Below are positions 9,756-62,460 of a stretch of 64,000 nucleotides of DNA, piece after piece. The stretch's first letter is position 1. Each line of letters opens with the position of its first letter. Source of the stretch: Antedon bifida. Its lineage: Eukaryota; Echinodermata; Crinoidea; Comatulida; Antedonidae. Location of the stretch: positions 7,821,501 through 7,885,500 of the forward strand of contig OY727096.1 in the NCBI GenBank assembly GCA_963402885.1. Direction: 5' to 3'. Under the pieces are notes generated by a model that did not search any database, was not told the DNA's origin, and saw only the letters and a program-made list of their open reading frames with translations. Made by a program: the position numbers and the translations under genes.

Positions 9756-11523
9756 TCAACAGTCACCGGAGTTGACAGCATCAGATCTACGCATTGTTAC
9801 TTCTTCCGTATTCTTTTCAATTTCTGTTAAATCCTGTCCAGTCACACTAGTATCATGTGCTTGCATGTCTTCAGATGTAGGCTTTGTAGTCGACTTTTCC
9901 TCGATATCGGATAATGTTGTTCCGATAGTGTAACTGTTGGAAGTTGGTCGCCTTGTAATTGTTGTGACAGCTTCTTCGATAGTTGTGGTGCTGTTTTCAG
10001 ATGTAGGCCTAGTAGTGACACTTTCCTCGATATCAGATAGTGTAGTTCCGATACTTTTACTGTTTGAAGTTCTACTCTTTGCAGTTGATGCGAAAGTATC
10101 TCCGGCAGTCGTGGTGCTGTGCATGTTTTCAGATGTAGTAGTCGACTTTTCCTCGATATCAGGCAATGTAGTTCCGATAGTGTAACTGTTTAAAGTTGTT
10201 ATTGTAATTGTTGTGACAGCTTTTCCGGTAGTTGTGGTACTGTGTCTGTTTTCAGATGTAGGCATAGTAGTCGACGATTCCTCGATATCAGATAATGTAG
10301 TTCCGACAGTGTTACTGTTCGAAGATGTTATTGTAATTGTTGTGATAGCTTTTCCGGCAGTTGTGGTGCTGTGCATGTTTTCAGATGTAGTAGTCGACCA
10401 TTTCTCAATATCAGATGTAGTTCCGATAGTGTTACTGTTGGAAGTTGTTCTTTTTGCAATTGATGTGATAGCTTCACCAATAGTCTTGGTTTCCTTGCTC
10501 TGAAATGATGTAGTTTTTGAAGGTTTAATTTCAGAAGTCGTCATCTTTGCACTAGTTGTGGCAACCTCTCTCACAGTTGACCTTTCTTCGTGATTGACTG
10601 TACTTTCCAAATTATCGGGCGTAGAAGTTTCCATAAAAGTTGTGTCAGCTGTGTGTGTTGTTCCAAAATTGTTCTTGTTAGTAACAGATATAGGCCTAAG
10701 CTGACTTTCTTCGATATCAGATGATTTAATTGTAAAATTCTCGGTAATAGTTATTGTTATCGCTTTCGTGCCTTGAATTTCTTCTGTTGTAGACCTCATT
10801 AAAGAAGTCCTTTTTTTATAAAGACAAGCACTGCTTTTCCCAATTATTTTAATGCAACGTTCTTTACCCGATACATTTACCATAGTTTGATCACTGGGGC
10901 ATGTTATGTCACTTGCTATTGCATATGACGTCAAACTAAGATAAATTTCAATAAGAAATGCCTGTAAAAAAAGAAAAAACTTATCTAATAAGACATTATC
11001 GTTTTATTAAAACATAGTATAATCAGGAATGAAAATAAACCGAGAATGAAATCAACACTTGCTATTGCATATGACGTCAAACTAAGATAAATTTCAATAA
11101 GAAATGCCTGTAAAAAAAGAAAAAAATTATCTAATAAGACATTATCGTTTTATTAAAACATAGTATAATCAGGAATGAAAATAAACCGAGAATGAAATAA
11201 ACCGAAAATGAAATCAACATTAACAATCGCATTGCATTTCCCAACTTTCTAGTTGGGATGAACTTGTGACATTAGCTATGGGGTCACATCATGATCTGGT
11301 AGCCTATATGTATTGTCTTGTGGTGTGGTACCGTTATATGTAGTGGTTGCCTTTTACAGTATTTTCTTAATTCTTTATTTGAAATAAAATTGAGAGAAAA
11401 AAATGGCCCTGAATGATCATAACATTTACATTACTAAAATTAAAAATTACTTACCCAATAAATAAATCTATGTTTAGATACGGATTTTTCAATTCGGAAC
11501 TTCTTTCCCGCCTTATTATGCAT
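9756..11523 (-). CDS. secreted Cys-module protein with Thr-rich repeats, lacks the LamG domain
   Basis: Two exons are inferred. Exon 1 (11455-11523) runs from ATG for 23 open codons to TGG followed by a GTAAGT donor. Exon 2 (9756-10961) follows a T-rich tract and CAG acceptor, and the join is phase 0 as in the paralogues. The predicted protein is about 424 residues. The hydrophobic AFLIEIYLSLTSYAIA at the start of exon 2 completes a signal sequence. It is followed by the family cysteine module (CPSDQT...RCIKI...CLYK). The rest is a Thr/Ser-rich stalk of about 5-6 units of roughly 38-41 residues, recognisable by GTTLSDIEE and TSENMHSTTT. The frame stops at 9756 with no LamG domain, and none is seen further downstream. 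It may be a truncated paralogue or a genuinely shorter secreted mucin-like protein. A possible donor (CCG|GTGACT) close to the stop leaves room for an unseen 3' exon. Confidence 0.65.
9840..10500 (-). repeat. coding tandem repeat, about 115-125 bp unit
   Basis: On the + strand the unit is marked by TTTTCAGATGTAG and CGATATCAGATAATGTAGTT recurring about every 115-125 bp. It encodes the Thr/Ser-rich stalk of the gene at 9756-11523. Units are divergent, which points to an older array than the ones at 22.1-23.3 and 60.2-61.2 kb. Confidence 0.7.
10911..11202. repeat. 146-bp tandem duplication spanning a splice acceptor
   Basis: 10911-11056 and 11057-11202 are near-identical direct copies beginning ACTTGCTATTGCATATGACG. 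The duplicated block contains the first about 50 bp of exon 2, its acceptor and part of the intron of the gene at 9756-11523. Only the copy at 10961 leads into the open frame. Confidence 0.85.
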
Positions 11524-11814
11524 ACTGACTAAATTTGTTTGTGTTAACTCTGAAAGCTGTGTACAAAATAATTTGTTTATGAGAAGGACTTTATATTGTG
11601 AAGATATTTACTGTATTGTTAAAGATATATTGTTTCCCAAAAACATGTAAATGAAGATTAATACAATTAGACTTTGAATAGGCAATGAATAAAGGTATTC
11701 ATTTCCGTATAAAAAAACGAAAAAAAGTAATGTTTTCACGTATAAAAAGAAAAAAATAAACTGTTAAATTCAACCAAAACCTATGGCAAGCCTCAGCTGT
11801 CTGAAGTATTCAAA

Positions 11815-12135
11815 ATATTATATTATTATATCATTTTTTTATTATATTATATATTGTATTGTAATGAATTATACGTTTTGCATTATATTACTTGGTTTTA
11901 GCATTATATTATATCTATTTCTAATATATTATGTGAAAAATGTAACAAATTATTGACTTTTTGTATTATATTATTCGGTTTTGGCATTATATTATGAACA
12001 TTTACTATTATATTATTAATAAAATACATTATATTATAATATAATTGTATTATATTAAACTCATTTACCTTACTTTATAACATACAACATTATTATATTA
12101 TACGGATTCGTTAGTTATATTATTATTTTGTATGA
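11815..12135. repeat. subterminal TTATATTA repeats in the left arm of the palindrome
   Basis: Many iterations of GCATTATATTA / TTATATTATT spaced by short linkers such as CTTGGTTTTAG and TTCGGTTTTGGC lie close to the left end. The mirror copy is at about 18440-18770. Repeated subterminal words are usual transposase-binding sites in DNA transposons; here that role is inferred. Confidence 0.7.
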
Positions 12136-12239
12136 TGTTTATTATACGTCACGGCTCATTTCAGTTCTTCTAACTCTTTCTCTCCCTCCCCCTGTTCACT
12201 AGCAATCAGCGGCAGAATCTGAATTGTGTGACTGTTGAA

Positions 12240-12740
12240 GAATAACTATACTACGTACTAGGCCTAGCCTAGGCCTACTAGGGGATCTAGCCTAGACGTA
12301 GCTAGTTAGACAAGTGACCAAGGACCACCGGACAGCTACAACTAATACTACAATACAATAATACTACTAATGCAATAACTACTACTGCTAATACTTAGGC
12401 CTAGCTAGTAGAGTACTAGGTAGGTTAGCTACTACTAGGCTCTAGGGGGGTTAGGGCGTATGTATGATGTTAACTACTAGGCCTAGGCCTACTAGTACTA
12501 GCCTAGGCTAGGCCTAGACTTAAGTTGTAGTAGGCTAGGGCCGGGCCTGCTGCCTTACTTAGGCTAGGCTAGGCTACTACTACTACTAGGCAGCCAGCCC
12601 ATGATGGTTACGAGTAAGCCAAAATTTTGGATATAAGTAAACCAAAATTTGGGTACGAGCGAGTTGGCATGGGTACGGGTTGACCTGTATCCTTCTTTCT
12701 AGCTAATCGTACTAGGCCTAGGCCTCAAGTAAGTCTACGC
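12240..12740. repeat. CTAG/AGGCCTA-rich simple repeat in the left arm
   Basis: Dense overlapping CCTAGGCCTA, CTACTAGG and TAGTACTA words form a low-complexity block, mirrored at about 17890-18320 in the right arm. It has no coding potential. Confidence 0.7.
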
Positions 12741-21184: not shown

Positions 21185-24100
21185 CTAAGTAACATAACTT
21201 GAATCATCATCATAACCATAATCATTAGGCCTAAACAAAGATATGCTTTCATCGTCGTATGCCGTAAGGACACTTCCATTCAGGGTTTGATTTTCTGTAA
21301 TTGCTGTCAGTGACGTTATAATTTGTGATAGCGTTAATTCACTTAAGCTTTCAAAATAATAAAGAATATACATTTGGTTTCTTGATAAATAAGTATTGAA
21401 AAGCATTAGATCATCTATCACCCCTTGAAATGAGGACGGCGCACAGCCATGTTCAAATTGACCTATTGACATTCTAAACGTAATACGTGCGTTGTAAAAG
21501 CAGCAGCTGTCGCAGTTATTAGATGAATTTCCGTTTAGATAAAATGAAAAGTCAGTGCCGTTGTAAGCCATTACTACATGATGCCATTCGTTTACATTTC
21601 CACCAACAATAGAGCAAATCACGTGCTCATTAAGATGTCCAACGACAACGATTTGATAATCATCGTTAATTTGTGTTGTAATTTTCCAACGATTAGGACC
21701 ACACCCATTATTAATTATAACTTGTGTGTGCATTCCACCTGTTCTTACAAACCACACACTCACGGTAAACTGGTCTATTTCGCCCAGACGAGACAGTGAA
21801 GGTACCACTAGTCGTTGAATACCAGTAAACTGAATGCCAACTCCATGAATTACAGGTATATAGCTATAGTTTATGTTAGTGCCAAGCATATTACCATCGT
21901 GACCATTACCGGAAGTGTCTTGTATGTTATGTTCAAAGTCGTAATAAGCTAAAATATTTACTTCTTCTGCTGCTGGATTCTCTTCAATTCCACCGACCAT
22001 GTGATCTGATAAATTATCTTTACTCGTGCCTTCTCCAACATTAGCTTTAGTCACTCCAATCGTGACTTCCGCTAAATGTTCTTCAGACAATATATTCGTG
22101 TTTTCTGATACGTTCTCGTCAGTCATCCTGTTTTCTTGTACATTCTCTTCTGTCAACACCCCATTTGTATGTTCTGTTACAATCTTTTCTGTCAACACTC
22201 CATTTGTATGTTTTGTTACACTTTCTTCTGTCAACACTCCATTTGTATGTTCTGTTACACTTTCTTCTGTCAACACTCCATTTGTATATTCTGTTACAAT
22301 CTTTTCTGTCAACACTCCGTGTGTATGTTCTGTTACACTTTCTTCTGTCAACACTCGATGTGTATGTTCTGTTACACTTTCTTCTGTCAACACTCCATTT
22401 GTATGTTTTGTTACACTTTCTTCTGTCAACACTCCATTTGTATGTTCTGTTACACTTTCTTCTGTCAACACTCCATTTGTATATTCTGTTATAATCTTTT
22501 CTGTCAACACTCCGTGTGTATGTTTTGTTACACTTTCTTCTGTCAACACTCCATGTGTATGTTGTGTTACACTTTCTTCTGTCAACACTCCATTTGTATG
22601 TTCTGTTACACTTTCTTCTGTCAACACTCCATGTGTATGTTCTGTTACACTTTCTTCTGTCAACACTCCATTTGTATGTTTTGTTACACTTTCTTCTGTC
22701 AACACTCCATTTGTATGTTCTGTTACACTTTCTTCTGTCAACACTCCATTTGTATATTCTGTTACAATCTTTACTGTCAACACTCCGTGTGTATGTTCTG
22801 TTACACTTTCTTCTGTCAACACTCCATGTGTATGTTCTGTTACACTTTCTTCTGTCAACACTCCATTTGTATGTTTTGTTACACTTTCTTCTGTCAACAC
22901 TCCATGTGTATGTTGTGTTACACTTTCTTCTGTCAACACTCCATTTGTATATTCTGTTACAATCTTTTCTGTCAACACTCCGTGTGTATGTTTTGTTACA
23001 CTTTCTTCTGTCAACACTCCATGTGTATGTTGTGTTACACTTTCTTCTGTCAACACTCCATTTGTATGTTTTGTTACACTTTCTTCTGTCAACACTCCAT
23101 TTGTATGTTCTTTTACACTTTCTTCTGTCAACACTTCATTTGTATGTTCTGTTACAATCTTTTCTGTCAAAACTCCGTTTGTATGTTGTGTTACAATTTT
23201 TTCTGTCAACACTCCGGTTGTATGTTCTGTTACACTTTCTTCTGTTAACACCCCATTTGTAGTTTCTTTTATATTATCTTCTGTCAACACACCATTTGTA
23301 TGTTCTGTCACATTATCTTCTCTCAACGCCCCGTTTGTATGTTCTGTTATGTTGATAACAACGGCGGTTGATAGTTCATCAAATTCTGTCGTCATTCGTA
23401 AATTCTTAATAGTTGTGGATTCTTTTAAAAATGTCCGAGTATCTCTGTCTATTACTGGCTCTGTGACTCTTTGTGTGATGTTAGCGTCACTTTCTCTGAA
23501 TATTGTATTGTTTTCTTTAGTCGTTTGGTTAGATACATTATTAACAGTATTTGTCATATTTTTACTATATCTGAAACACTTATTTTTGACTAAAAGCGTA
23601 ACACATCGGTATCCGTCTGAAGCTTTCACTAGTGTCTGGTTGACTGGGCATGCGCTGATATTTTTACAATCTGCTAAGTAACATCTTTGAGTTACAAGAA
23701 ATTCCTAAATCAAAGAAACGTTATCCATAATTATTTAACAATTTAAAGTTATATTTTTAAATTACATTTTGAAAACATGCCAGAAAAGAATATATTATTA
23801 TTGTCATTGTAATAATAATATTTATCATTATTATGATTATAGATGTAGACCTACATTAAAGATGTATTGTCCCCCTGAAAAAATAATTCTTAAACAATTT
23901 TTTGTTGAATATTCCATATTAATGTAACATAATATTTATCCACTTTGACCAAAAATTGGATCGAAAAAAAATGTATTTACCTAAAAAAAACGTGATTTAA
24001 AGCAAAAAATGGTCAAATTGGCTGCCAGCCAATGGTTTTTTGGTTGAATTTAACCATTTATTTTGTCATTTTATAAGTGAAACCATTATTTTTTTAATTT

Positions 24101-24502
24101 TTTTTTCTATGGAAGTGATCAACTTTATTAAAACTACAAAATAATATATTCAAAGTCTGATATAATTATTTTTCATTTTTCATGTTTTTGGGGGACAATA
24201 CATCTTTAAAAAATGAAGAAAAAATTTAACTTTTAGGCCTATAACTGAACAAAACAGAAAAATACCTATTTAATAGTAGACCATTTTTGGATATCTTAAA
24301 TTGTCTGTACAGGTATACGTATTTTGCAGTAGAGCACTGAGTCGAATAACAAATATAAATAGACGAAACATGTCTGTTGGTTGCCCATCACCGAAAATGT
24401 CCCAACCTATAATAATGTGACAATGCAAGTACTTACCCAAATTATTATTATATAAATTAATGTACATTTTCGTAGAATTTCAGTACTATTTTTGCAAAAC
24501 AT
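21185..24502 (-). CDS. secreted LamG_3-domain protein with 13-residue repeat stalk
   Basis: Two exons. Exon 1 (24437-24502) is 22 codons from ATG to TGG before GTAAGT. Exon 2 (21185-23704) follows a TTTAG acceptor, phase 0. The predicted protein is about 861 residues. The signal sequence spans the join (TLIYIIIIW then EFLVTQ). The cysteine module follows at about residues 41-65 (CPVNQT...YRCVTL...KCFRY). The stalk has about 31 tandem 13-residue units of the type VTEHTNGVLTEES, acidic and Thr-rich. The LamG_3 domain occupies about the last 260 residues, with VSVWF, IINNGCG, NEWHHVVM and the closing GVIDDLMLFN. After the domain comes a Tyr/Asp-rich tail not seen in paralogues. It is probably extracellular; the ligand is unknown. 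A MITE sits in the intron. The only in-frame start is in exon 1, because exon 2 has no ATG before the cysteine module. Confidence 0.8.
22136..23345 (-). repeat. 39-bp coding minisatellite (about 31 units)
   Basis: On the + strand the unit reads CTTCTGTCAACACTCC followed by ATTTGTATGTTCTGTTACA, 39 bp. Variants marked by KI, YTNG and HTHG recur every 5-7 units, so a higher-order unit has been amplified. All frames stay open because the unit is a multiple of three, which creates long false frames on the + strand. Confidence 0.9.
23857..24209. mobile_element. MITE in the intron of the 13-residue-repeat LamG gene
   Basis: The termini TTAAAGATGTATTGTCCCCC and GGGGGACAATACATCTTTA are a near-perfect inverted pair about 350 bp apart, with TA at both edges, as in Tc1/mariner-derived MITEs. 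The centre carries the internal palindrome GGCTGCCAGCC. Relatives lie at 38772-39079 and 11619-18914 (split). Confidence 0.8.
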
Positions 24503-31154: not shown

Positions 31155-32594
31155 TTAGATCTGATATAAGGTTTGAATTACGTTTATGGGTATAGAGCTA
31201 TTAAATATTAACAATTCATCTATCATACCATTAAATGGACCATACGAATTAGAACATTCATCACTAGTTTGACCAACGAAAATATCAGAACTCATAACGG
31301 GAAGTTTAAGAGAAACATCACCTGCCAGTACGCCGTCTATGTACACGGAAATCACAAAGCCATTACACGTCATAAGTACATGATGCCATTCTTGGACTTC
31401 TTTAACAAAACCAATGACAGTTCCAGATAACATATCATCGGTAAATACAACCATAACCATATTTGATATTGATATTATTTCCCAGTGAGCACTACCACAC
31501 CCATTGTTTATGATAACTTGATTTCCATCACCACCAACACGACGAAACCAAAAACTGACAGAAAATTCAAAATCCAAATCCTCCAATGCAAACATCATTC
31601 TCTGATTGCCTGTAAAAACAATTCCTAGGTTAAGAAATCCATGTGTGAAGGTAATTCCAGAACCGCTCATGGCACCGTAGATTTCTGTGTCAACTGAGCT
31701 GGCCAATGTATTGCCTTCAAATGCGAAATGAGCCAAAATACCATCATGTATTTTTTCTGATGTAGCTTTCGTTTGGTTAGATACATTGTTTACTGTATTT
31801 GTCATATTTTTACTATATCTGAAACACTTATTTTTTACTAAAAGTGTAACACATCTGTGTACGTCTGAAACTTTCACTCGTGTCTGGTTGACTGGGCATG
31901 CACTGATATTCCTACCATCCACTAGGTAACTTCGCTGAACTGCAAGAATTGTCTATTAAAAAAATATCGATAAAATACAATTATTAATATGTAGTACATT
32001 TTTCTAGAGCTCTTAACGTTGTCTATTATTGTATATACAAAAGTACAGCCAATCTTATAACTGTAAAGGTAAATTGTTTAGCATGCGCTGATATTCCTAC
32101 CATCCACTAGGTAACATCGCTGAACTGCAAGAATGTTCTATTAAAACATATCGATAAAATACAATTATTAATTCTGAAAACATATTTACAACTTTTAAAT
32201 AATGTTTAATACAGAAAAAAGAAAATATTAACATTGTTATAATTCATATCATTCGAAATATGAAAATATTGAAAACCAAAAAAAAAATGAAATGATGATA
32301 AAAACCGATCATTATAATAAAGTCTAAAAAAATTAATCTAAAAAAGTAGAATATAAAACTGGGTTTTTTTTCATCATGTCAATGCTGTGGTTTCGTTTTC
32401 TTTCGGCCAAAAGGTACTCAATGCCACTTCGTTATGCATAGGCCTACAGTAGTAATAATTCGCACACTTCCAACCCTGTAATAATTTCAAATTGTCCCAG
32501 TCTATAAATACTTTGACAATGTACTTACCAACATTATTATGACGTGACTTAATGTACGTTTTCGTAGAATTTCAGTACTATTTATACATAACAT
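31155..32594 (-). CDS. secreted LamG_3-domain protein, short form without repeat stalk
   Basis: Exon 1 (32529-32594) has 22 codons from ATG to ATG-TTG before a GTAAGT donor. Exon 2 (31155-31952) follows TTTTTTTAATAG, phase 0. The predicted protein is about 287 residues. The signal sequence is split by the intron (LSHVIIML then TILAVQ). The cysteine module is clear (CPVNQTRV...RCVTLL...KCFRY) and is almost identical to that of the neighbour at 21185-24502. A linker of only about 25 residues leads to the LamG_3 domain: ILAHFAFEGN, FSVSFWFRR, IINNGCG, EWHHVLMTC and GMIDELLIFN. There is no stalk. The frame has no defects. It is a secreted single-domain lectin-like protein of unknown ligand. A partial second copy of the exon 2 start lies in its intron, and another usable first exon lies upstream at 33426-33491. 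Confidence 0.8.
32080..32165 (-). pseudogene. partial duplicate of a family exon 2 start
   Basis: Near-copy of the first about 55 bp of exon 2 of the gene at 31155-32594, with its acceptor region and adjoining intron: GCGCTGATATTCCTACCATC and ACATCGCTGAACTGCAAGAA. It ends abruptly within the family sequence and lies inside that gene's intron. It is a relic, although the AATAG acceptor is still recognisable. Confidence 0.7.
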
Positions 32595-33425: not shown

Positions 33426-33491
33426 CCACATTAATATTATATGAATCAATGTACATTTTCGTACATTTCTGTTATTAATATTGGACACCAT
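33426..33491 (-). other. orphan family exon 1 (22 codons) with splice donor
   Basis: On the minus strand, ATG is followed by 21 open codons ending ATG-TGG and then a GTAAAT donor. Length, reading frame and the ending LIHIILMW match exon 1 of the family exactly. No exon 2 lies between this exon and the next first exon at 32529-32594. It may serve as an alternative first exon for the gene at 31155, since phase 0 is compatible, or it may be all that is left of a deleted gene. The conserved upstream block is present at about 33528-33584. Confidence 0.65.
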
Positions 33492-41914: not shown

Positions 41915-44900
41915 CTATTCAGTATTTGCATTCCTGTCTTGGTACAAATTTTGAATTAGCTCTGTTGGTAAACAACTATTGAACATAACCAATTCATCGA
42001 TCATACCTGTAAATGGACGTAATTGAAAACAATCATCACTTTGTTGACCTACGAAAACATCCGAATTCGATATTGAAAAGTTACCAGATGTAACGCATTG
42101 TTCTTGAATTGCCGCGTTTAAGTAAAATAGAAAAACAGAACCATCATACCATTCATTAATAGCTTCCCCTGTACAGATACAAGTTATATCATCTGTAAAT
42201 TTACCCATAATATTCATCAATCCTGTGCTTTTTTTAAATACACTTTTTATTTGCCAGCGATTACCGTCACCACACCCATTGTTTACGACAGCTTGAATAT
42301 TATCACCACCATTGCGTCGAAACCAAACACTGACTGAAAATTCAGGTCCAAGTTCAAATGTTTGCATTGGAATCGTCATTCGCTGGTTTCCCGTGAACAC
42401 AATTGCAAGGCCACGAATTCCATTTTGATATTCAATTCCAGAACCGTTAATATTACCGTAGAATTGTCTATCAATGCCACTGGTCCATGTATCACCTTCA
42501 AATTCAAAATTAACCAAAATATCATGAGATGTGCTATCACATGTTCTATATGATGTAGTAACTTTACCAACTTCCGTGTTTCCGATTGTTGTAGACGATG
42601 GATTTATAGTAGTTGGTGAATGTGTAGGAGATGGTGAATTTATAGTAGACGGTGGATTTATAGTTGATGGTGGATTTATAGTAGACGATGGATTTATAGT
42701 AGATGGTGAATTTATAGTAGACGGTGAATTTATAGTAGATGGTGAATTTATAGTAGACGGTGAATTTATAGTAGATGGTGAATTTATAGTAGATGGTGAA
42801 TTTATTGTAGATGGTGAATTTATAGTAGATGGTGAATTTATAGTAGACGGTGAATTTATAGTAGACGGTGAATTTATAGCAGACGGTGAATTTATAGTAG
42901 ACGCTGAATTTATAGTAGATGGTGAATGTAGAGTAGATTGTGAATTTACAGTAGAGCGTCCATTTGTGTTGTATGTATCACTTTCTTCTGGTACTAGTAT
43001 TTCATTAGGCACTTGAGATACTGTGGTAATTTTGTGAATGTTTCTTTCTAACGTTACTAAATGTAACGTAGCTCGCGAGCAGCTCCTACAAGAAAACAAA
43101 TGTATAACAGAATGAATAATTTGTAGGCATATAATAGTGTAACTTATAAGATCTAATGGGTGTTAATCACGATCGACTCAAAATTCGATCAAATCTAGGG
43201 TCGTCTTTTGATGTAGGTAGAAATATATTACATTCATTCGTGAATTGATGATGAATAGCGTCCTCTATTTTTATTTTAGGTTCTGTCTTAGTAGTAGTTT
43301 AAAAAACTACAATTATTTAATTACATCAGTTAAAAATCATGCAGTGCTTTGGTAACAATTCGTATCACTTTTTTTCGGGTATAAGAATTTCATTACTCAC
43401 GTCAGGCATTTGAGATACATTTTTGACTGTGTTAATGTTGTGAATATTTTTCTTTTTAAAAGAAAAACATTTCTTTTCAAATAGGTTGATACATCGATAG
43501 CCTTCAAATGTTTTCAGCAGTGTTTGATCCACGGAACATGAGTTCACACTTCTAACGTTAGTAAATGTAACGTAAGCCGCGAGCAGCTCCTACAAGAAAA
43601 CAAATATATAACCAAATGAATAAATTGTATAGTGTAAATTATAAGATCTAAAAGTGGGTGTCTTCGATGGTCTTACATAAATTGTTGATTATTGTTTATT
43701 GATTTAATATTGTTTGTAATGAAAAAATGACTATCTTAAAATAAATGTTTATTGAACTTAAACTTGAAGTGAATTGGTGATAAATAGCGTCCTCTATTTT
43801 TGATTTTGTGTTCTGTCTCATTTCATTTTTATTCATTTCATTATTTATTTGGTCTATTTGAGTATATACATAACACAAAAAAAACTGAAATTGGGGAGAC
43901 CAGGGTCAACCTAAGTGAAATTAATCACTGTAGCTGAGCCGGTTGACCCAACCCCAAAGTCAGTATTAGTTTAAAAGATTACAATAATGTTATTATATCA
44001 GCTAAAAAACAAATCCAACAACACCAATGCTGTTTATTAATTGATGATTGGGAAAAATTCTCCTAACCTCTTAATCTTTGATTTTACTAATAGTGACTTT
44101 GTTTCCACTCGACTTTGCAGCTGTCGAGTTAGAAACATGCAAATATTGAAACATGCCCATGATTTAGTAACATGTTAGAACCCAACGAAAAACAAACAAA
44201 CAAATAAACAAAATAAACAAACAAACAAGAATGATTCTCAGACTGCGTATCGAGTGACGACGCTAATAACAGAGACTTGACAAATTAAAAAAATTGAAAG
44301 AAAGTGTGATTCAAGTGAGGCTTCTCGCCTGTAGTTTCCACTTCTGATATTAATTAAGTTCACACCAACCATTAAACGTTTAACCATTACAAATTAAAAA
44401 AGAAAAATATGTTTTCCACAAAAATACTACAGTACAGAATAATTGTGCCTTTGCATCAACTTTTTTACTGGTAAAATCGTTGAGGTACTGTATTATTAGA
44501 TTGACAATCTATTAAAACCTCAATAGTACTTTTTTAAATTAAAATATCGACCAGACCTTTTTTTACAATTGAAAAATTACAAATTTATTTTTATACTACT
44601 ACTGTTTTTTAAAAATAGGTTATTAGTAGGGTAGGAAGGAGGGGTTACCGTGCACCCCCATATCGTTTTATTAGGTTTATAGAAAACGGCGAAGACAGAC
44701 AGCAGTAGTGTAGGTGGCTAGATGACAGATGCGATGAAAATAGCATTTAAGAACACTTATAACTTATCCGATTATCCAAAAAAAAAAGCCATGCGAACTA
44801 CGCAGTTGTACGGGAAGATAATAATATATTATTATATTTCGTTTCTTGAAAGAGCATTAAGCAGGTCGGCTGGATATTTATATTTTATTCATGCCCTACG

Positions 44901-45053
44901 TTTTGTTTGTATGTAAGAACAGCCTATTGTTATTGAATGTTAGTCCCTGAGTTCCCTATATCTCAGTCTAAGTACATACGGTATCCTACTTACCAATATC
45001 ATCACAACATTGATAGCAGTTCTTTTAATTCCGTTGATGTTTCTGCTTAACAT
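41915..45053 (-). pseudogene. disrupted LamG_3 family copy with duplicated exon 2 start (6-residue repeats)
   Basis: Exon 1 at 44994-45053 (20 codons from ATG to TTG, GTAAGT donor) looks usable. A first exon 2 (43365-43589) encodes the signal-sequence end and the cysteine module (CSVDQT...YRCINL...KCFSF) but meets a stop at 43365, after an extra A in an A run. A second, tandem-duplicated exon 2 (41915-43085, offset 504 bp) keeps the acceptor but has lost the cysteine module by a deletion that also shifts the frame, so the stalk (about 20 six-residue units, STINSP type) and the LamG_3 domain cannot be read from a phase-0 splice. The LamG domain also lacks about six residues at NEWHHVVMTY (reads NEWYDGS). 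No arrangement of these parts that follows the family's splicing gives a full protein. Confidence 0.7.
42605..42960 (-). repeat. 18-bp coding repeat (STINSP stalk)
   Basis: On the + strand GTAGATGGTGAATTTATA recurs about 20 times with little drift. It is the same basic unit, by length and sequence, as the larger array at 60160-61215. Confidence 0.85.
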
Positions 45054-47939: not shown

Positions 47940-49284
47940 TCAGTACCTTCTGTCATAGAGAATTTTAATTAAATCTGATGTTAAAGGACTGCTGAATATG
48001 AACAATTCATCTATCATACCAGTGAACGCATTTGGTGCGCAATCATCACTTTGTCGACCTACGAAAACATCCAAATTCGTAATTGGAAAGTTACCAGATG
48101 TGATGCATTGTTCTTGAATTACAGCGTCTAAGTAAAGTATAAACTCAGGGCTTTTATACGTCATCACTACGTGATGCCATTCATTAACTGCTTCAACCAT
48201 ACAGACACAAGCTCTTCCATTAGAAAATGTAGCAACAACTTGCATCAACATTCGACTTGAAACCATAGTTTTGATTTGCCAGTGGTCAGTACCACACCCA
48301 TTGGTTATTATAACTTGATTATCACTACCACCATTGCGTCGAAACCAAACACTTACTGACAATTGAGGTACAAGATCAAAATATTGCATTGGAATCATAA
48401 TTCTCTGGCTGCCCGTAAACACTATTCCTAGATCCATACTTCCATTTTGAAAGTCAATTCCAGAACCGCTTGTATAACCAAAGAGTTCTAAACCTAATGA
48501 GCTGCCCTTTACATTGCCTTCAAATCCATAATGAACCAAAACATCATGTAAAGTACCACATGTTCTAGTTGTAGCATTAATTATATTGAAATTTATATTT
48601 GCAACTTCATAATCTCCGACTGTTATCTCATTCGAAATACTTTTTCGGGAATATCGAAAGCATTTATTTTCAACTAGTTTGACACATCGGTTTCCTTCCA
48701 AAGTTTTCAACAGTGTTGCATTGACTGGGCACAGGATGGAATGCTTCGTTAGGTACAATCCCTGAACGACAAGAAGTTCCTGAAAACAAATATATAGAAT
48801 TGATGAATTAAAGAATATGTTGTCTGTTAAAACCCAGTATTTTTTTCGGTGTAAATACAAATTCCAATAAGTAGATATATAACCTAGATTCCTAAAAAAT
48901 GTCCACCTATGGGATGCTTGTCTCTTTTCGACAGGTTCGGTCGATTAGACGGCCAACCTAGCTGAACTACAGCAAATAGTCCTTCATTTTTATTTATTTG
49001 AATTTCATTAGATGTATAAGATATCTCTGTTCGATTGTGTATAGACATTATACTTCCAGGTGTTATTATAGAAGGTAAAATATACATTTTATGATCAAAA
49101 ATTTTCCGCTTAGAGGAGGTATCCAATGCACAGGTTAGATAATAATAGGGAGTTTTTCTCTCACGAGAGGAACGACATGCAGGTTCAACTGTATCCACAC
49201 TAAGCTTGTTTATGTATGTTTGTTTGAGAATGGAAATAAATAACGAAAGAATATTTTTATGAATGCATATTTACTTACCCACAT
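47940..49284 (-). CDS. secreted LamG_3-domain protein, short form; N-terminus doubtful
   Basis: Exon 2 (47940-48779) follows TTTGTTTTCAG and encodes the cysteine module (CPVNATLL...NRCVKLV...KCFRY), a linker of about 35 residues without repeats, and an intact LamG_3 domain (GIVFTGSQRIMIP, LSVSVWFRR, IITNGCG, NEWHHVVMTY, FTGMIDELFIFS). The expected exon 1 is recognisable at 49279 and above with its GTAAGT donor. However, the in-frame codon 12 upstream of the donor-proximal TGG is a stop, so only ATG-TGG (49279-49284) remains and the signal peptide would begin MWELLVVQGL. That is weaker than in other members. Either a different first exon is used or the copy is losing secretion. The predicted length is about 281 residues. 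AATAAA overlaps the stop codon. Confidence 0.65.
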
Positions 49285-53147: not shown

Positions 53148-55679
53148 GAAAAGAAAGGTTTAACGGACGGACTTTACAAACCCAAAACATTGTATCAATG
53201 TCTTTCTTTTTTTTTTGTAAATGCTTTTCGCAATATGTACTAATATTGAGAGAATAATTAGAGGCTACCATGGCTTTCTTTTAATTGTTTATTCATAAAA
53301 GTTTTTCTGGCTTCCCACGCCCTGATATATATTAAGGTTTAGAACCTTTTCCACCCTCTTGAAAAATATTAAGTTTACAAACAAGTTTTAGTTTATAGAC
53401 AAAATAGCTGTAGTTGTGTAGGTGACTAAAGGATTAAAATAGTCTACATGCAAACATTTAAGACCAACTACAACTATCTGAATGACAGGAAATCATAAAA
53501 TATGAAATACGTACAATTGTTGTATGGGACTCGTCATCATTTACAGTATCCTTAGCGACACACCAATTCAAGAGAGAATGTTTCCATGAAATAAACATGG
53601 AGTAATGCATGTAAACTGGAGACGCCTCTATTAATGTAACAGTTAATTAGGTTCAGAAAGTGTTCCTTACTTAGGTTTATACTGTATTTTATTTCTTAAA
53701 TAGGCAAGTGATAATGTTGGTTAAAATCCATATCACATGCATATTGTTTTGTCTTTTTTTTTCAATAGTTTATAATCATTATGTCGCATTGTTAGTTATT
53801 GGTAGTTACTGTAGGAAAAGCCTATTGTTACTTCATGTGTCCATCATAATGCCCGAACTCCCCTTTCTAGATAATACCTACCAAGTACCTACCAATACTA
53901 TTACAGCGTGAATGTACTTCCCCTTCTTTTTAAATGTCGAAATCTTGAAATTAAAAAGATGCTTGCATGTGATGTGAAGAAACGGTAGTCGATCCCATTT
54001 ACATTAACCAAATTTCCGAAATCACTTTTAATTAGCTGGCTCTCTATATACTGTATCATAGATTTCATTGCAATAAAACAGATTCTTCATTACCAAGTTT
54101 CAAATATACATCGTTGAAAAAATTGAAAATGAACAGAGAATTTGAACAACAATGATAAAGTAAGAAAAGCCCAGTCCTATCGGTTAATGTTTTTTCATAA
54201 TTTTATTGACTCTTTTGATTCTCCATTTGATAATTGAGAAAACAAGCAATAATAATCAATACAATAATATGAACAAGTTTGACATTAATAAGTGAACTTT
54301 ATTTCAGGTATTTACAGTAATATTACAGGTATTTAGAAACCTTCATAAAAGTCATGACCAAAATCAGCAAAGTAATAAACAATTAATGCTAGAAAACCTT
54401 TTGACATACTACTGTCCTTAACATTTTGTTTATAAAATCTTTTCATATTATGTTTACTTTCGAAATAGAGATTATACTAGTACCTAATATTTTTATTTCA
54501 TAGATTTGCTCCAAATTGTTTTTGTGTTTAACATTGTTAATATTCTTAAACAAAGCCGTTTTGATTTGGATAAAGTATGTTATGTTTATTAGGAAGATTG
54601 TTCTTGAATTTAGAGACTGTAGCGACATCTATATATATATATATATAAATCCAAAAGCAAACAACTGAAAAAATGACAATGCTGTGGGTATCAGTGGCTG
54701 GATCTCAATGGAGATACAAAAAAAAGCGAAAAGCTAAATCAAAACGATAAAGTAAAACAGCCAGAAAAGTTAGCAGAGCTTTCGGGCACCACTAGCCCTT
54801 CATCAATGCAAGGCATCTATATATATATATATATAATTAAATATATTCATAAAGCATTAGAATATATTGTGGGGAATAGTATATAAAATTACATCGGGAG
54901 AACTGATGATAAGACCTTTTGTTTGAAATCGAGTGAAACTCCGATAGCCGTGTTGTTGAGTTAGCTAACTAACTGTGAGCTATCTGTGTCCCGTTAGGAC
55001 CCTGAGATACTTCTGCCCATGTTGCAAGCCGTCTAAAACGTCTTCCTTCTTAGGCAGAAAACGGCCCACTGTGTCGCGGAAGTTAATTTCAAAATATACA
55101 TTTATACACATATTGTATTATATTTACACTATATATAATATTATACTATTTGTAGTAGAATTCATCGGACTGTTTACAATTTACCAAGCATTTGTTATGT
55201 TACCACTATATATTAGAGGATTTTATTTGATTATAAATGTACCCATTGTTATCAAAACTAACAAATTAAACGTATCCATCGAATAAGCACCTCCTTTAAA
55301 TGAAGTCGACCTTCCCACCTCCGCCCTATAAGGGCCCTACCAAACGATAAACACTATACCTTAAAATGTTATTAATCGTCTAAGACACTCAGTGAAACAG
55401 AGTAGGTTTAGTTTTACGAATATTAAGCATTTCAATAATGGTAATCGACCGGAAACGTCCAAGCCAGAACGCCCTTCTAAAACCTTTTTACCAGAGTCAT
55501 TATCATTCCGAGAACCATCGTCTACAATTCCTAGAGGGGAAGCAAGCTTACCATCTAGTATATGTAATGCCAGTAATTAAATTCGACATATTCAACGATT
55601 GGCCTACATGTAGGTCGACATTACTAGTAACAGGCTTCTTTCTTTTGGTGTATTTAATATTTTTATTCCTGTCGATATA
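53148..55679. other. intergenic, diverged copy of the array's spacer, no gene seen
   Basis: Parts align with the spacers at 56.9-59.4 and 61.5-64.0 kb: GTGTAGGTGACTAAAGG near 53418, and the half-hairpin GATTCTCCATTTGATAATTG near 54216. A TA-flanked repeat lies at 54631-54832. No supported gene. Confidence 0.55.
54631..54832. repeat. repeat bracketed by TA microsatellites
   Basis: CATCTATATATATATATATA occurs on both sides (about 54628 and 54808) of about 160 bp ending GAGCTTTCGGGCACCACTAG and CCCTTCATCAATGCAAGG. The direct flanking repeats suggest a microsatellite-associated mobile sequence. Confidence 0.5.
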
Positions 55680-55800
55680 GAAGATTTGAAAAATATTGAA
55701 TATGAACTGTACAATTCATCTATCCGTACAAGAAAAGCATTTTAGATATAAACAATCATCACTTTGTTGACCTACTATCCAAATTCAAAATTGTTATTGT
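55680..55800 (-). pseudogene. LamG domain 3'-end fragment
   Basis: On the + strand ATATGAACTGTACAATTCAT and CAATCATCACTTTGTTGACC match the reverse complement of codons for ...SDDC...MIDEL(F)IFN in the family, with gaps. It lies just downstream of the intact gene at 55873-57854 and is out of frame. It is a scrap left by duplication or gene conversion. Confidence 0.6.
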
Positions 55801-55872: not shown

Positions 55873-57854
55873 TTATTCAATATTGTCATTCCTGTTGTTA
55901 TATAAATTTCGGATTAGCTCAGTTGGTAAACAACTATTGAAAATAAACAGTTCATCAATCATACCGGTAAACGGACGTAATTTAAAACAATCATCACTTT
56001 TTTTACCTACGAAAACATTCGAATTCGAAATTGGAAAGTTACCAAATTTAACACATTGGTCTTGAATCACGGCGTTTAAGTAAAATAGAAAAACGAAACC
56101 ATCATACGTCAAAACTATATGATGCCATTCATTATTAGTTTTCACTACACAGATACAAGTTATATCATTTGTAAATTTACCCATAATCTTCATAAAACCT
56201 GTACTTTGAACTGAAATTTTTATTTGCAACCGACCTTCGTCACCACACCCATTGTTTATTATAGCTTGAATATCATTACCACCATTGCGCTGAAACCAAA
56301 CACTGACTGAAAATTCAGGTCCAAGTTCAACATTTTCCATTGGAATCATCATTCTCTGGTTTCCAGTGAACACAATTCCAAGGCCGAGAAGTCCATTTCG
56401 ATACTCAATTCCAGAACCGCTAATATTACCGTAGAATTGTCTGTCAATGCCACTGGTCCATGTATCACCTTCAAATGCGAAATGAACCAAAATATCATGA
56501 GATGTGCTATTGCATATTCGATATGGTGTAGTAACTTTACCAACTTCCGTGTTTCCAATGTTATTAGACTGTACATTTACAGTAGAAGATGAATTTATTG
56601 TGGACGAAGAATGTATATTTGATGGTGAATTTATAGTTGGTGGTGAATCTGTAGTAGATTGCAAATTCATGGTTGATGGTGAACTTATAGTGGATGGTAT
56701 TATTATTTTATTACTCACGTCAAGCATTAGAGATACATTTTTAACTGTAGTAATATTGTTAATAGAATGCGTTCTTATAAATGTAAAACATTTATTTTCA
56801 ACTAGCTTGACACACCGATATCCTTCCAATGTTCTCACCGGTGTTTGATTGACTGAACACGAGTTAGCGTGTGCTAAGGTAACGCAAATTACGAGTAATT
56901 CCTGCAAGACAATTAAATAAGCAAGTAAACGGAAGTGATAGTTGCAATATCCATTAGAAAATAATCGAACATAAAATAATGTTAGAGCCTCTTCTCAATT
57001 GTTTCTTCAAGAAAGTGGTACTGTAATTTGCACTCGCGTTTGTTGTTTATGATAATTTGAAAGGCTCACCAAATTCCTCAATTCACAAGTGGTTATGTAG
57101 GTGACAGAATACATGAAAGTATTTAAGACCCCTTTGTTATGATATATCTGAATGGCTTATGGCACTACTACGATTATATAGAAATAATATATTTATTCTC
57201 GGCATACTATACAGTAAGTAAAACCCCATTAGATGCACTCTTACTGTTTTTATGAAAAACCTCTTATTAATTTTTAATTAATTTCATATCTGTCTTTCTT
57301 TTGATCATTTTATCATATCTTATATGGTATCATATGAAATATCATATTCCAGTCTAGGCCTACTCAATTAGTGTTCGTGAGAGTTTCGGTTGATTAGAGG
57401 GCCAGAATTCTTAGCTGACCTGCAGCAGATAGTTTAGACATTGTACATTTTCATTGAATCGGTAAAAACGAGGATTGCGTGTAAAAATTATATTCTTCAT
57501 CAAACTTACTTACAGAAGGTAAATTGTCATTTGTAAAAGTTGCCACTTACATGATGCATGCTTACAAATATTTTATGATACCATTATATTACGTGTTCAA
57601 AAAAGTTTAGATTGTTTGAAATATTAATATTGTTTGATTGATTGGATAATGTTCAAAAGAACAAACCCCATAAAAATGCACAGAGGGTAGTACAATATAG
57701 GGTTTCCATGGATGAGTGTCCTTTATGGAAAGTTTTCTAAACGAGAGAATGGTTCAACTGTATTTATAGTATATATTTTCAATAATGCACATTTACTTAC
57801 CCACATTAATAGAATATGAATTAGTAGACATTTTCGACCACTTCCGCTGCTCAT
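55873..57854 (-). CDS. secreted LamG_3-domain protein with short 6-residue stalk
   Basis: Exon 1 (57801-57854) encodes MSSGSGRKCLLIHILLMW before GTAAGT. Exon 2 (55873-56901) follows TTGTCTTGCAG, phase 0. The predicted protein is about 360 residues. The joined signal peptide has a basic start and a hydrophobic core running into LLVICVTLAHA, with likely cleavage before NSC. The cysteine module is C-S-V-N-Q-T...YRCVKLV...KCFTF (about residues 32-55). A short degenerate stalk of about ten Ser/Thr/Pro/Asn hexads follows, then the LamG_3 domain (FSVSVWFQR, IINNGCG, NEWHHIVLTY, FTGMIDELFIFN). The start was taken as the ATG of exon 1; the position of the 22-codon start used elsewhere is ATT here. The frame is open further upstream, so a longer start cannot be excluded. 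AATAAA overlaps the TAA stop. It is a close duplicate of the next gene. Confidence 0.85.
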
Positions 57855-57934
57855 TTTGTGCAAAATTCTACTATCAGGGAAAAGTGAAATTTCTTCCCTG
57901 CTACTATCTTCAAACTGTATCAACTCCGTTTCAT

Positions 57935-58000
57935 TTATGGCTTGCAAGCTAAGTGAGTCTGTTTCTTGAATTTGGTACACGACACTTATTAAATTGTACA
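57935..58000 (-). promoter_or_regulatory. conserved upstream block, gene at 55873-57854
   Basis: GGCTTGCAAGCTAAGTGAGT and, about 25 bp further upstream of the gene, CACTTATTAAATTGTAC match the blocks at 49361-49416, 33528-33584 and 62540-62602. Position (about 80-145 bp before the start codon) and conservation suggest core promoter and transcription start. Confidence 0.4.
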
Positions 58001-58824
58001 ATATTCTGTGTCCATTGCCGTTTCTAATTAAACATTATCAATTTTCTCCAATCTAAACTATAATTTTGAAACGTTGTATCAAATACCAAATTTGTAGTCC
58101 TATAATTTAATATGTTTTGTTATTAATATAATATTCTACAAATAATGTTTTCTGCTACAAAACCTCAAAACAATATATTTCACTTATTGATGGCGTGTTC
58201 CAATATTTGTAGAAATCGATTTATTAATAGTTTACTTAATAGTTGTTTATAGTACTGTACGTGTTCTATTACAAATAATGAAAATAATAATAGCGAAATA
58301 TTGTTTGAAATATTATTACTTTTAATTCTTACTGTTCAACCAAAGCACAAATAAATTAGATGCTTGTCATTTTCAGGTACTATAATATATAAATAATAAA
58401 TGGGTGCAATGGTACAAATAATGTTATGGATATACCAAATAAAATTTGTTTTATTTATTTTATACACTTCTACTTTAACGAGAGGCTAGGCCATGTTGAC
58501 TTTCTAAAGCGATCAGTCAACAGCCTAGCCTCGTGTCGCGCGGGTTGCTCATTATGTAACAATTATAATTATATAACACCTAAATAAATTCCTGTAATTG
58601 TATTGGGTGATTGTAGGTCACATGACGTGCAATAGTACGCACTATTTTATGATCGTTAAATAGTACTTTTCTAATTTTTTTCGTGCACATCATGGCCATT
58701 ATACGTCATAAAAATCGGTATGTATAATTATATGGTTAAAACACAAAGAAAATCAACACTGACAGAATCCAATCAATGATGTTTGTATAAGTAATAAAAG
58801 CTCAGTCCTATCGATTACGTATTG

Positions 58825-59000
58825 ACTTTAGTTGACTATTTTTATTCTCCGGTTGGTAATTGAGAAAACAACATTGATAAGCAATACAGTAAAACGAATA
58901 CGTTTAGACAAAACGTGTTCATTTTATACTGTAATGCTTATTAATGTTGTTTTCTCAATTACCAACTGGAGAATCAAAAGTCAGCTTTATTGACAGGTAC
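58825..59000. mobile_element. foldback MITE, copy 1
   Basis: GATTCTCC-type words TCTCCGGTTGGTAATTGAGA and TCTCAATTACCAACTGGAGA form arms of about 75 bp, continued by ACAACATTGATAAGCAATAC against its near complement. It is present again at about 63400-63575 through the segmental duplication, and as a one-armed remnant near 54200. Confidence 0.7.
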
Positions 59001-59481
59001 TTTAAGTATATGAGTAAAAATAAATAATATTTATTTCTTATTCTTATTACAATAGTTTAAACAATTCAAAAACTTCATAACGATCAACAGTGATAACACA
59101 ATCAGCAATACACAAAATTTAATATACAATTCTAGAAAACTACCTACTTGACTGTAACATACCACCGTACTTAACCTTATATTAATTGACCTCTTCTTCA
59201 ATTAACCTTTGAAATAAACTCCAAGTTTCTAATATTTTACTTGAAACAATTTGAGAGTATTTTTTACATTATTAATACTATTCCTTTTACGAGTTTTGAT
59301 TTTTGACAGACTATAACACTGTACTATAATAATTATTATAATTAAAACGATTGTTATTGAATTCGGAGATTCAGGCGTCATATACAGCATACATTGATAC
59401 CAGTCATTGAAAGTCGACAATTTGATACATGTAGGCCTAAATTGTTGGTAACATGCTTCTTTCTTTTGTTTATTCAATGTT

Positions 59482-62460
59482 TTAATTCCTGTTGTTATAC
59501 AAAATATGGATTAGCTCTGTTGGCATACAACTATTGAATATCAACAATTCATCTATCATACCAGAAAATCCATTTAGAGAGAAACAGTCATCACTTTCTT
59601 GACCTACAAAAATATCCGAATTTAATATAGGAAAGTTACCAAATGTAACGCATTCTTCTTGAATTACAGCGTCTAAGTAAAATAGAAACACAAATCCATC
59701 ATACGTCATAACTACATGATGCCACTCATTATTATCTTCCACTTTACAGATACAATTTACATCATTAGTAAATGTACCAATAACGTACATCGGTCCTGGA
59801 TTTGAAAAAATTGCTTTTATTTGCCAATGATCATTACCACACCCATTGGTTATTATAGCTTGAATACTATCACCACCATTTCGTCGAAAGAAAACACTGA
59901 CTGAAAATTCAGGTCCAAGTTCAAATGTTTGCATTGGAATCGTCATTCTCTGGTTTCCTGTAAACACAATTCCAAGGTCGAGAATTCCATTTTGATATTC
60001 AATTCCAGAACCGCTAATATTATCGTAGATTTGTCTACCAATGCCATTGTTGGTCCATGTATCACCTTCAAATACGAAATGAACCAAAATATCATGAGAT
60101 GTGCCATCACATGTTCTATATGATGTAGTAACTTTACCAACTTCCGTGTTAGACTGTACATTTATAGTAGAAGGTGAATTTATAGTTGGTAGTGAATTTG
60201 TAGTAGATGGTGAATTTGTAGTTGGTGGTGAATTTGTAGTTGGTGGTGAATTTGTAGTTGGTAGTGAATTTGTAGTTGGTGGTGAATTTGTAGTTGGTTG
60301 TGAATTTATAGTTGGTGGTGAATTTGTAGTTGGTAGTGAATTTATAGTTGGTGGTGAATTTGTAGTTGTTTGTGAATTTGTAGGTGGTAGTGAATTTGTA
60401 GTTGGTGGTGAATTTGTAGTTGGTGGTGAATTTGTAGTTGGTGGTGAATTTGTAGTTGGTGGTGAATTTGTAGTTGGTTGTGAATTTGTAGTTGGTGGTG
60501 AATTTGTAGTTGGTGGTGAATTTGTAGTTGGTAGTGAATTTGTAGTTGGTAGTGAATTTGTAGTTGGTGGTGAATTTGTAGTTGGTGGTAAATTTGTAGT
60601 TGGTGGTGAATTTGTAGTTGTTTGTGAATTTATAGTTGGTAGTGAATTTATAGTTGGTTGTGAATTTGTAGTTGGTTGTGAATTTGTAGTTGGTGGTGAA
60701 TTTGTAGTTGGTGGTAAATTTGTAGTTGGTGGTGAATTTGTAGTTGGTGGTGAATTTGTAGTTGGTGGTGAATTTGTAGTTGGTGGTGAATTTGTAGTTG
60801 GTGGTGAATTTGTAGTTGGTGGTAAATTTGTAGTTGGTGGTAAATTTGTAGTTGGTGGTAAATTTGTAGTTGGTGGTGAATTTGTAGTTGGTGGTAAATT
60901 TGTAGTTGGTGGTGAATTTGTAGTTGGTGGTGAATTTGTAGTTGGTGGTGAATTTGTAGTTGGTGGTGAATTTGTAGTTGGTGGTAAATTTGTAGTTGGT
61001 GGTGAATTTGTTGTTGGTGGTGAATTTGTAGTTGGTGGTGAATTTGTAGTCGGTAGTGAATTTGTAGTTGGTAGTGAATTTGTAGTTGGTGGTAAATTTG
61101 TAGTTGGTAGTGAATTTATAGTAGAAGGTGAATTTATAGTTGGTGGTAAATTTGTAGTAGATGGCAAATTCATAGTTGATGGTGAATTTATAGTAGATGG
61201 TGAATTTTTAGTTGATGATGGATGTTTAGTAGATTGTGAATGTTGGGTATATTTTGCATTTACAGTTAAATGTTCGTTTATATTATATATAACACTTTCT
61301 CCTGGTATTATTATTTTATTACTCACGTCAAGCATTAGAGATACATTTTTAACTGTGGTAATATTGCTAATAGTATGTGTTCTTAAAAATTTAAAACATT
61401 TATTTTCAACTAGCTTGACACATCGATATCCTTCCAATGTTCTCACTGGTGTTTGATTGACTGAACACAAGTTAGCGTGTGCTAAGGTAACGCAAATGAC
61501 GAATTCCTGCAAGACAATTCAATAAGCAAATAAACGGAAGTGATAGTTGCAATATCCATTAGAAAATAATAGAACATAAAATAATGTTAGGGCCTCTTCT
61601 CAATTGTTTCTTCAAGAAAGTGGTAGGCCCTACTGTAATTTTGTTGTTTATGATAATTTGTAAGGCTCACCAAATTTCTCCATTCCCTATAAGTGGTTAT
61701 GTAGGTGACAGAATACATGAAAGTATTTAAGACCACTTGTTACTATATATCTGAATAGCTTATGGCACTACTACGATTATATAGAAATAATATATTTATT
61801 CTTGGCATACTATACAGTAAGTAAAACCTCATTAGATTCACTCTTACTGTTTTTATGGAAAACCTCTTATTAATTTTTAATTAATTCATATCTGTCTTTC
61901 TTTTGATCATTTTATCATATCTTATAAATGGTATCATATGAAATATCATATTCCAGTTTAGGCCTACTCAATTAGTGTTCGTGAGAGTTTCGGTTGATTA
62001 GAGGGCCAGAATTCTTAGCTGACCTGCAGCAGATAGTTTAGACATTGTACATTTTCATTAAATCGGTAAAAACGAGGATTGCGTGTAAAAATTATATTCT
62101 TCATCAAACTTACTTACAGAAGGTAATTTGTCATTTGTAAAAGTTGTCACTTACATGATGCATGCTTACAAATATTTTATGATACTATTATATTACGTGT
62201 TCAAAAAAGATTTAGATTGTTTGAAATATTAATATTTTTTGATTGATTGGATAATGTTCAAAAGAACAAACCCCATAAAAAATGCACAGAGGGTAGTACC
62301 ATATAGGGTTTCCATGGATGAGTGTCCTTTATGGAAAGTTTTCTACACGAGAGAATGGTTCAACTGTATTTATAGTAAATATTTTCAATAATGCACATTT
62401 ACTTACCCACATTAATAGAATATGAATTATTAGACATTTTCGACCACTTCCGCTGCTCAT
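59482..62460 (-). CDS. secreted LamG_3-domain protein with long PPTTNS repeat stalk
   Basis: Exon 1 (62407-62460) encodes an 18-residue start differing from the neighbour by one residue (CLIIHILLMW). Exon 2 (59482-61506) follows TTGTCTTGCAG, phase 0. The predicted protein is about 692 residues. The signal peptide ends in VICVTLAHA. The cysteine module has Cys at about 32, 47 and 55 (CSVNQT...YRCVKLV...KCFKF). A stalk of roughly 58 hexads (PPTTNS/PPTTNL) spans about residues 100-470 and resembles a mucin-type, O-glycosylated rod. The LamG_3 domain fills about the last 210 residues: FSVSVFFRR, IITNGCG, NEWHHVVMTY, FSGMIDELLIFN. The W of SVWF is F here. The frame is clean despite the repeats. 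AATAAA follows the stop within a few bases. It is a tandem duplicate of 55873-57854 with a hugely expanded stalk. Confidence 0.85.
60160..61215 (-). repeat. 18-bp coding minisatellite (about 58 units)
   Basis: On the + strand GTAGTTGGTGGTGAATTT repeats almost without break. Single-base variants (AGTGAA, GGTAAA, TGTGAA) give Ser/Leu/Gln changes at fixed places. Low divergence between units implies recent expansion and likely length polymorphism. It also keeps the opposite strand open over 451 codons. Confidence 0.95.

What the first reader, a model, noticed from the sequence alone, without database searches (positions are those of the whole stretch)
9756..62460. Tandem array of a secreted Cys-module / repeat-stalk / LamG_3 gene family
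At least seven minus-strand gene copies (five intact in appearance, one with a doubtful N-terminus, one lacking LamG), two large pseudogenes and several scraps share one architecture: split signal peptide, three-Cys module with the NQT and RCV words, variable stalk, C-terminal LamG_3 domain. I do not recognise this combination as a described family. A tandem array of secreted, two-exon, repeat-rich, fast-changing proteins recalls the sea urchin Sp185/333 (Trf) immune effectors and gamete-recognition families in general arrangement only. Function is inferred as recognition, adhesion or defence.
Basis: partly seen in the sequence, partly recalled or inferred. Interest (0 to 1): 0.88.

Follow-up and report, generated by a model that had tools for sequence, protein, structure and literature searches.

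The report
Shuffled lectin-like gene array, feather star
A row of nine related gene copies, probably from a feather star, encodes proteins predicted to be secreted, with an unrecognised cysteine module, a repeat stalk of very variable length and a LamG fold of the kind found in sugar-binding proteins; in at least one copy the front and back halves differ in ancestry, and the family is likely used to recognise varied targets such as microbes.

Summary
In detail: nine same-strand units at 9756-62460, six with exon 1 plus open exon 2, five of those with LamG_3. A neighbouring gene is 98% identical to an Antedon mediterranea protein, so the source is probably a feather star. The Cys module matches nothing in Pfam (0 of 9 copies) or the PDB. 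Two protein searches found only three distant LamG_3 proteins (21-28% identity), none named as animal. New here: halves of one gene can have different histories. g31 joins a g21-type Cys module (synonymous difference 0.27) to a LamG near g42/g56/g59 (0.41-0.42; 0.68 to g21). g56 has a front nearly identical to g59 (upstream 97%), a LamG closest to the g42 pseudogene's, and behind it a decayed LamG tail with g59-type 3' flank. Stalk units are whole codons, stop-free, changing near neutrally. Folded modules are under purifying, not positive, selection. Best reading: a mosaic, probably secreted, lectin-like recognition family; its role is inferred. It works like Sp185/333 but is not a member.

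The parts
11455..11523 (-). g10 exon 1 (23 aa, front of the leader)
   Evidence: ATG to GTAAGT donor, phase 0
9756..10961 (-). g10 exon 2: Cys module + S/T-rich stalk with 126-bp units, no LamG; 424 aa model
24437..24502 (-). g21 exon 1
21185..23704 (-). g21 exon 2: Cys module, about 31 x 13-aa stalk, LamG_3 (E 1.7e-12); 861 aa model
32529..32594 (-). g31 exon 1
31155..31952 (-). g31 exon 2: stalkless; g21-type Cys module joined to a LamG_3 (E 7.4e-12) of the g42/g48/g56/g59 group; 287 aa model
33426..33491 (-). orphan exon 1 copy
36135..36200 (-). p35 exon 1
34437..35828 (-). p35 exon 2 pseudogene: Cys module, 45-bp-unit stalk, LamG in shifted frames
39231..39296 (-). g37 exon 1
37327..38568 (-). 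g37 exon 2: Cys module, 15-aa-unit stalk, LamG_3 (E 9.7e-16); 435 aa model
44994..45053 (-). g43 exon 1
43365..43589 (-). g43 Cys-module piece, ends in a stop
41915..43162 (-). g42 stalk (18-bp units) + LamG_3 (E 4.2e-7) with a short gap; disabled partner of g43
47940..48779 (-). g48 exon 2: Cys module + LamG_3 (E 3.2e-15), no repeat stalk; its exon 1, ending at 49279, has TGA right after ATG
57801..57854 (-). g56 exon 1 (18 aa)
55873..56901 (-). g56 exon 2: g59-like Cys module, short 6-aa-unit stalk, LamG_3 (E 1.8e-14) closest to that of g42; 360 aa model
55605..55791 (-). decayed LamG tail behind the g56 stop codon, closest to the end of g59, followed by g59-type 3' flank
   Evidence: 71% over 210 columns; z 27.6 and 16.3 against shuffles
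62407..62460 (-). g59 exon 1 (18 aa)
59482..61506 (-). g59 exon 2: Cys module, about 58 x 6-aa stalk, LamG_3 (E 1.6e-12); 692 aa model
56695..59423 (-). segment duplicated at 61303-64000 (94% overall): g56 Cys module, intron, exon 1 and upstream, up to 59 bp short of the g59 stop

Best explanation
This is a tandem, same-strand family of nine two-exon gene copies (six structurally intact), probably from a feather star, whose proteins are predicted to be secreted and would hold a lectin-type LamG head on a repeat stalk behind a three-cysteine module, and whose copies have likely been diversified by exchange of module-sized pieces between neighbours. Shown: the architecture; purifying selection on Cys module and LamG; whole-codon, stop-free, near-neutral stalk arrays; different histories of Cys module and LamG in g31; a g59-like front, a g42-like LamG and a decayed g59-like LamG tail in g56. 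Inferred: secretion; glycan binding by the LamG fold (nearest solved fold: domain 4 of the arabinanase AbnA); cross-linking through the odd third cysteine; use in recognising varied external targets, such as microbes or particles in mucus. Mechanism proposed: the stalk is a spacer free to change length by repeat slippage, and recombination or gene conversion between tandem copies places one promoter/leader/Cys front before another LamG head.
Against: No transcript, protein or binding data. No signal-peptide predictor was available; hydropathy only. The Cys-module alignment alone does not reject g31 grouping with g48/g56/g59/g42 (AU p=0.17), and the g31-g48 and g31-g37 contrasts are not significant (p=0.33, 0.66); nor is the g56-g59 synonymous contrast between Cys and LamG (p=0.084). 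In g56/g59 divergence rises gradually from intron to LamG end rather than at one break in the stalk, so a sharp joint at the stalk rests on g31 alone. No positive selection on LamG. No relatives in other animals, so no conserved-site test of ligand binding. A shared fold shows no function. The runs test can be inflated by locally conserved stretches; stalk differences copied by repeat expansion are not independent events, so P=0.007 is rough.
Confidence: 0.5

Rival explanations
1. A structural or adhesive secretion family (mucus, food-groove or tube-foot secretion, matrix): the stalks are mucin-like spacers and LamG binds the animal's own glycans; variation is tolerated, not selected.
For: Stalk residues change near the neutral expectation; S+T 26-43% in five stalks, P up to 23% in g59; no positive selection.
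Against: LamG heads stay diverged although noncoding flanks of g56/g59 are about 97% identical; stalk unit types differ between copies.
Confidence: 0.25
2. Neutral birth-and-death array: tandem duplication, patchy gene conversion and decay, with a few working genes of ordinary function; the mosaic structure has no role.
For: Three of nine units are damaged, plus scraps and a relic LamG tail; the divergence gradient in g56/g59 fits overlapping conversion tracts.
Against: Six units keep open frames of 287-861 codons; dN/dS below 1. Neither excludes a neutral origin of the mosaics.
Confidence: 0.3
3. Gamete-recognition or egg/sperm coat family.
For: Tandem, repeat-bearing secreted families of narrow distribution are known in gamete recognition (recalled, no call).
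Against: No sign of positive selection in either folded module; no expression data.
Confidence: 0.12
4. Assembly artefact: two haplotypes laid in tandem (g56/g59) and chimeric joins.
For: Flanks differ by only 2-3%, within reach of allelic difference; the decayed tail behind g56 and its flank also match g59, so the two copies could be allelic versions of one locus; a 7-kb palindrome lies in the same window.
Against: The discordance also appears between old, diverged copies such as g31, and LamG of g56 and g59 differ at 29% of synonymous sites, far above the flanks.
Confidence: 0.1

Closest known systems
Sp185/333 (SpTransformer) immune genes of sea urchins
   Same: Tandem clusters of small two-exon genes, leader in exon 1, repeat-bearing mosaic in exon 2, segmental duplication, proposed gene conversion (PMC3091723: abstract and section 24; PMC5103432: abstract and section 18; PMC5491942: passages)
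   Different: SpTrf proteins are Gly-rich, RGD, His-rich; here 1 RGD in 7 models, G 4-8%, H 2-6%, and LamG_3 and a Cys module are present. PMC5103432 section 18 reports almost no pseudogenes there; three of nine units are damaged here
Rlec lectins of the prawn Macrobrachium nipponense (PMC7536079, abstract read)
   Same: Lectin gene family with coding tandem repeats of varying number
   Different: C-type lectin domain and 30/33-bp repeats there; LamG_3 and 18/39/45/126-bp units here
SmPoMuc polymorphic mucins of Schistosoma mansoni (PMC2576457, abstract and section 19 read)
   Same: Repeat-bearing gene family with mosaic genes from recombination and purifying selection on the constant part
   Different: No LamG head mentioned in what was read; another phylum
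ConA-like folds in solved structures: AbnA domain 4, PAPP-A, a Limulus pentraxin
   Same: Fold of the C-terminal domain
   Different: Only 10-20% identity; no match for the Cys module

Membership tests
Laminin_G_3 (PF13385) | domain match at or above gathering score | tested here: met
   7 of 9 family ORFs score 30.7-58.7 against cutoff 27.6; g10 and the first p35 ORF do not match
Sp185/333 (SpTrf) | two exons, leader in exon 1 | tested here: met
   Six complete models; here the hydrophobic core runs on into exon 2. No transcript confirms the splice
Sp185/333 (SpTrf) | Gly-rich, RGD, His-rich mature protein | tested here: not met
   1 RGD in 7 models, G at most 7.9%, H at most 5.5%, no His run over 2
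C-type lectin / FREP | Lectin_C or fibrinogen domain (defining domains recalled) | tested here: not met
   No such Pfam match up to E=1 in the nine family ORFs
Mucin-like protein | Ser/Thr/Pro-rich tandem repeats | tested here: inconclusive
   S+T 43% and P 23% in g59, S+T 40% in g10, but S+T 26-28% with 17-19% acidic residues in g21 and g37
Secreted protein | cleavable signal peptide | tested here: inconclusive
   Hydrophobic core across the exon junction in 5 of 7 models; no predictor available

The most novel reading that the evidence does not exclude
Feather stars carry their own combinatorial recognition family, unrelated to sea urchin Sp185/333: a leader/Cys front cassette and a LamG lectin-head cassette reassort between tandem copies across a codon-periodic minisatellite stalk, leaving relic heads behind, so that stalk length and head identity vary independently.
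Probability: 0.3. Interest if true: 0.8.

Novelty: new variant of a known kind. Interest (0 to 1): 0.58.

Why it matters
Diversified secreted recognition families are well studied in sea urchins and little described in crinoids, the sister group of the other living echinoderms (recalled). If this array is a recognition family, mosaic tandem effectors arose at least twice in one phylum from unrelated protein parts. The Cys module has no match in the family libraries searched, and the array gives a system for testing whether coding minisatellites act as joints for swapping protein halves.

Tried and rejected
Rejected: positive selection on LamG or the Cys module (dN/dS below 1 wherever computable; window ratios above 1 go with low synonymous change). 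Rejected: the orphan exon 1 at 33426-33491 as the lost front of the LamG now in g31; it resembles g21 most (local score 72), then g48 (60) and g37 (53). Pfam hits NucS_C, UPF0552 and DUF7185 in g21 fall in its repeats and are taken as chance; Toxin_R_bind_N in g31 is below its cutoff. Bacterial neurotoxin chains in the fold lists share only the ConA-like jelly roll; no toxin reading is drawn. The three profile hits (one unnamed, one from a marine sediment metagenome, one named gliding motility-associated-like) and one viral-contig locus match at 21-28% identity.

Led nowhere: Rfam (0 matches), tRNA scan (0), phage records (0), NCBIfam (sub-cutoff matches only). Exon-1 pairwise identities were unusable and the script stopped. 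AlphaFold of the Cys module alone is weak (pLDDT 62, pTM 0.34, two strands); no fold search was run on it, so its fold is open. The whole-protein model rests on 10 window sequences and residues 1-77 and 85-109 are below pLDDT 50.

Papers: ten searches ran and none of the listings showed this combination; the library lacks most subscription papers and preprints. Passages of PMC10381214 (echinoderm matrix) were looked at and gave nothing on this family.
Full report
WHAT IS THERE. The window is animal DNA. A sulfotransferase ORF at 4132-5037 is 98% identical over 98% of the query to an Antedon mediterranea protein and 79% to one of Anneissia japonica, so the source is probably a feather star, Antedon or a near relative. 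The claimed array is real: nine units on the minus strand. Exon 1 encodes 18-23 residues and phase-0 introns of 493-900 bp follow in the six complete models; a large exon 2 encodes the rest. The donor is GTAAGT in 9 of 10 exon-1 sequences compared. Intact: g21 (861 aa), g31 (287), g37 (435), g56 (360) and g59 (692), with LamG_3, and g10 (424) without it. Damaged: p35 (frameshifts), g42/43 (Cys piece split from stalk and LamG), g48 (TGA right after ATG in exon 1).

SELECTION. dN/dS is 0.21-0.64 in every pair where it could be computed: 22 of 36 Cys-module pairs and 20 of 21 LamG pairs, pseudogene pieces included. This supports working proteins and argues against positive selection of the average site. 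Within the g31/g42/g48/g56/g59 LamG group pN/pS is 0.64.

MOSAIC HISTORY, g31. Its Cys module is g21-like (synonymous difference 0.27, nonsynonymous 0.11); its LamG is far from g21 (0.68, 0.41) and nearer g42/g48/g56/g59 (synonymous 0.41-0.42), while its Cys module is far from g42, g56 and g59 (0.81-0.83). Four g31 contrasts have p below 1e-4, and g42-g48 has p=1.6e-4; these five of 21 pairs pass the Bonferroni limit, though they are not independent and g42's Cys data come from the split g43 piece. g31-g48 (p=0.33) and g31-g37 (p=0.66) do not pass. The LamG alignment rejects g21+g31 as sisters (AU p=0.02); the short Cys alignment cannot decide (p=0.17). The g21/g31 match climbs from 80 to 93% and drops to 33% at the Cys/stalk border.

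MOSAIC HISTORY, g56. Upstream, exon 1 and most of the intron match g59 at 94-100% per 200-bp window, the window across the intron end and exon-2 start at 92%, and the Cys module and stalk start at 88%. The first 300 bp of the LamG half match at 90-92% and the rest at 74-81%. Counts are 44/1530 upstream, 12/599 in the 5' intron, 22/293 in the 3' intron and 35/121 LamG synonymous sites (noncoding against LamG synonymous p=4e-23). Coding sequence is thus more diverged than its noncoding surroundings. The LamG of g56 is closest to that of g42 (synonymous 0.21 against 0.29 to g59; 96% support). Behind the g56 stop codon lies a decayed LamG tail, 55605-55791, which matches the end of g59 best (z 27.6; g48 17.1, g42 14.1) and runs into sequence found only in the 3' flank of g59 (z 16.3; the 5 other copies tested at most 0.5). 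The simplest reading is that a g42-like head was placed in a g59-like gene and the old head decayed behind it. The divergence is graded rather than broken at the stalk, so conversion tracts with different ends are likely involved, and allelism of g56 and g59 is not excluded. p35/g37 show 89-95% over most of the upstream and exon 1 (75% in the outermost window), 67-82% in a gapped intron, 91% in the Cys module and 67-83% in LamG; with p35 a pseudogene this pair decides little. A runs test over 484 polymorphic sites of seven copies is significant (global p=0.0005), with g21-g31 lowest on both measures.

WHAT IT MOST LIKELY DOES. The anatomy suggests a secreted protein with a lectin-type head on a flexible stalk and an odd number of cysteines suited to cross-linking, encoded in an array that exchanges parts. 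The most likely role is recognition of varied glycans in defence or mucus. The sequence shows the array, the constraint and the mosaicism; secretion, glycan binding, oligomerisation and target are inferred. Rivals are a structural or adhesive secretion, a neutral birth-and-death array, gamete recognition, and assembly artefact.

RELATION TO KNOWN SYSTEMS. In arrangement it works like Sp185/333 (PMC3091723: abstract and section 24; PMC5103432: abstract and section 18; PMC5491942: passages). It is not a member: there is no Gly-rich/RGD/His-rich protein and LamG_3 is present. Other analogues are prawn Rlec lectins (PMC7536079, abstract) and SmPoMuc mucins (PMC2576457, abstract and section 19). 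Two protein searches found three distant LamG_3 proteins, none named as animal, although the collection holds at least some Antedon and Anneissia proteins. The family may be restricted to few species or missed by gene prediction; I cannot tell which, because the own-genome search did not complete in 11 tries.

Noticed in passing
window 11782-18798: A palindrome of about 7 kb between g10 and g21, centred near 15.2 kb; most of its 24 matched blocks are 90-99% complementary. Either a real inverted duplication or an assembly fold-back.
   Followed up: partly
window 49806-50145 and 50506-50838: Inverted arrays (93% alike) of a CCACGGCAAATTAAAAAT-type minisatellite.
   Followed up: no
window 10910-11202: A 147-bp tandem duplicate (98.6%) covering the acceptor and start of g10 exon 2, giving two possible acceptors.
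   Followed up: no
window 26347-27558 (-), 28065-29211 (+), 51438-51813 (+): ORFs that look like remnants of non-LTR retrotransposons: zf-RVT and Exo_endo_phos matches below cutoff for 26350-27558 and 28065-28811, the rest by eye.
   Followed up: no
whole window: TAGGCCTA occurs 45 times against 0.55 expected from base composition.
   Followed up: no
window 61303-64000: The segmental duplication still matches at the window edge, 59 bp before the point where the copy at 59423 meets the g59 stop codon, so another family member may begin just beyond 64000.
   Followed up: partly
window 4132-5037: Sulfotransferase-like ORF (PF19798), 98% to an Antedon mediterranea protein.
   Followed up: yes
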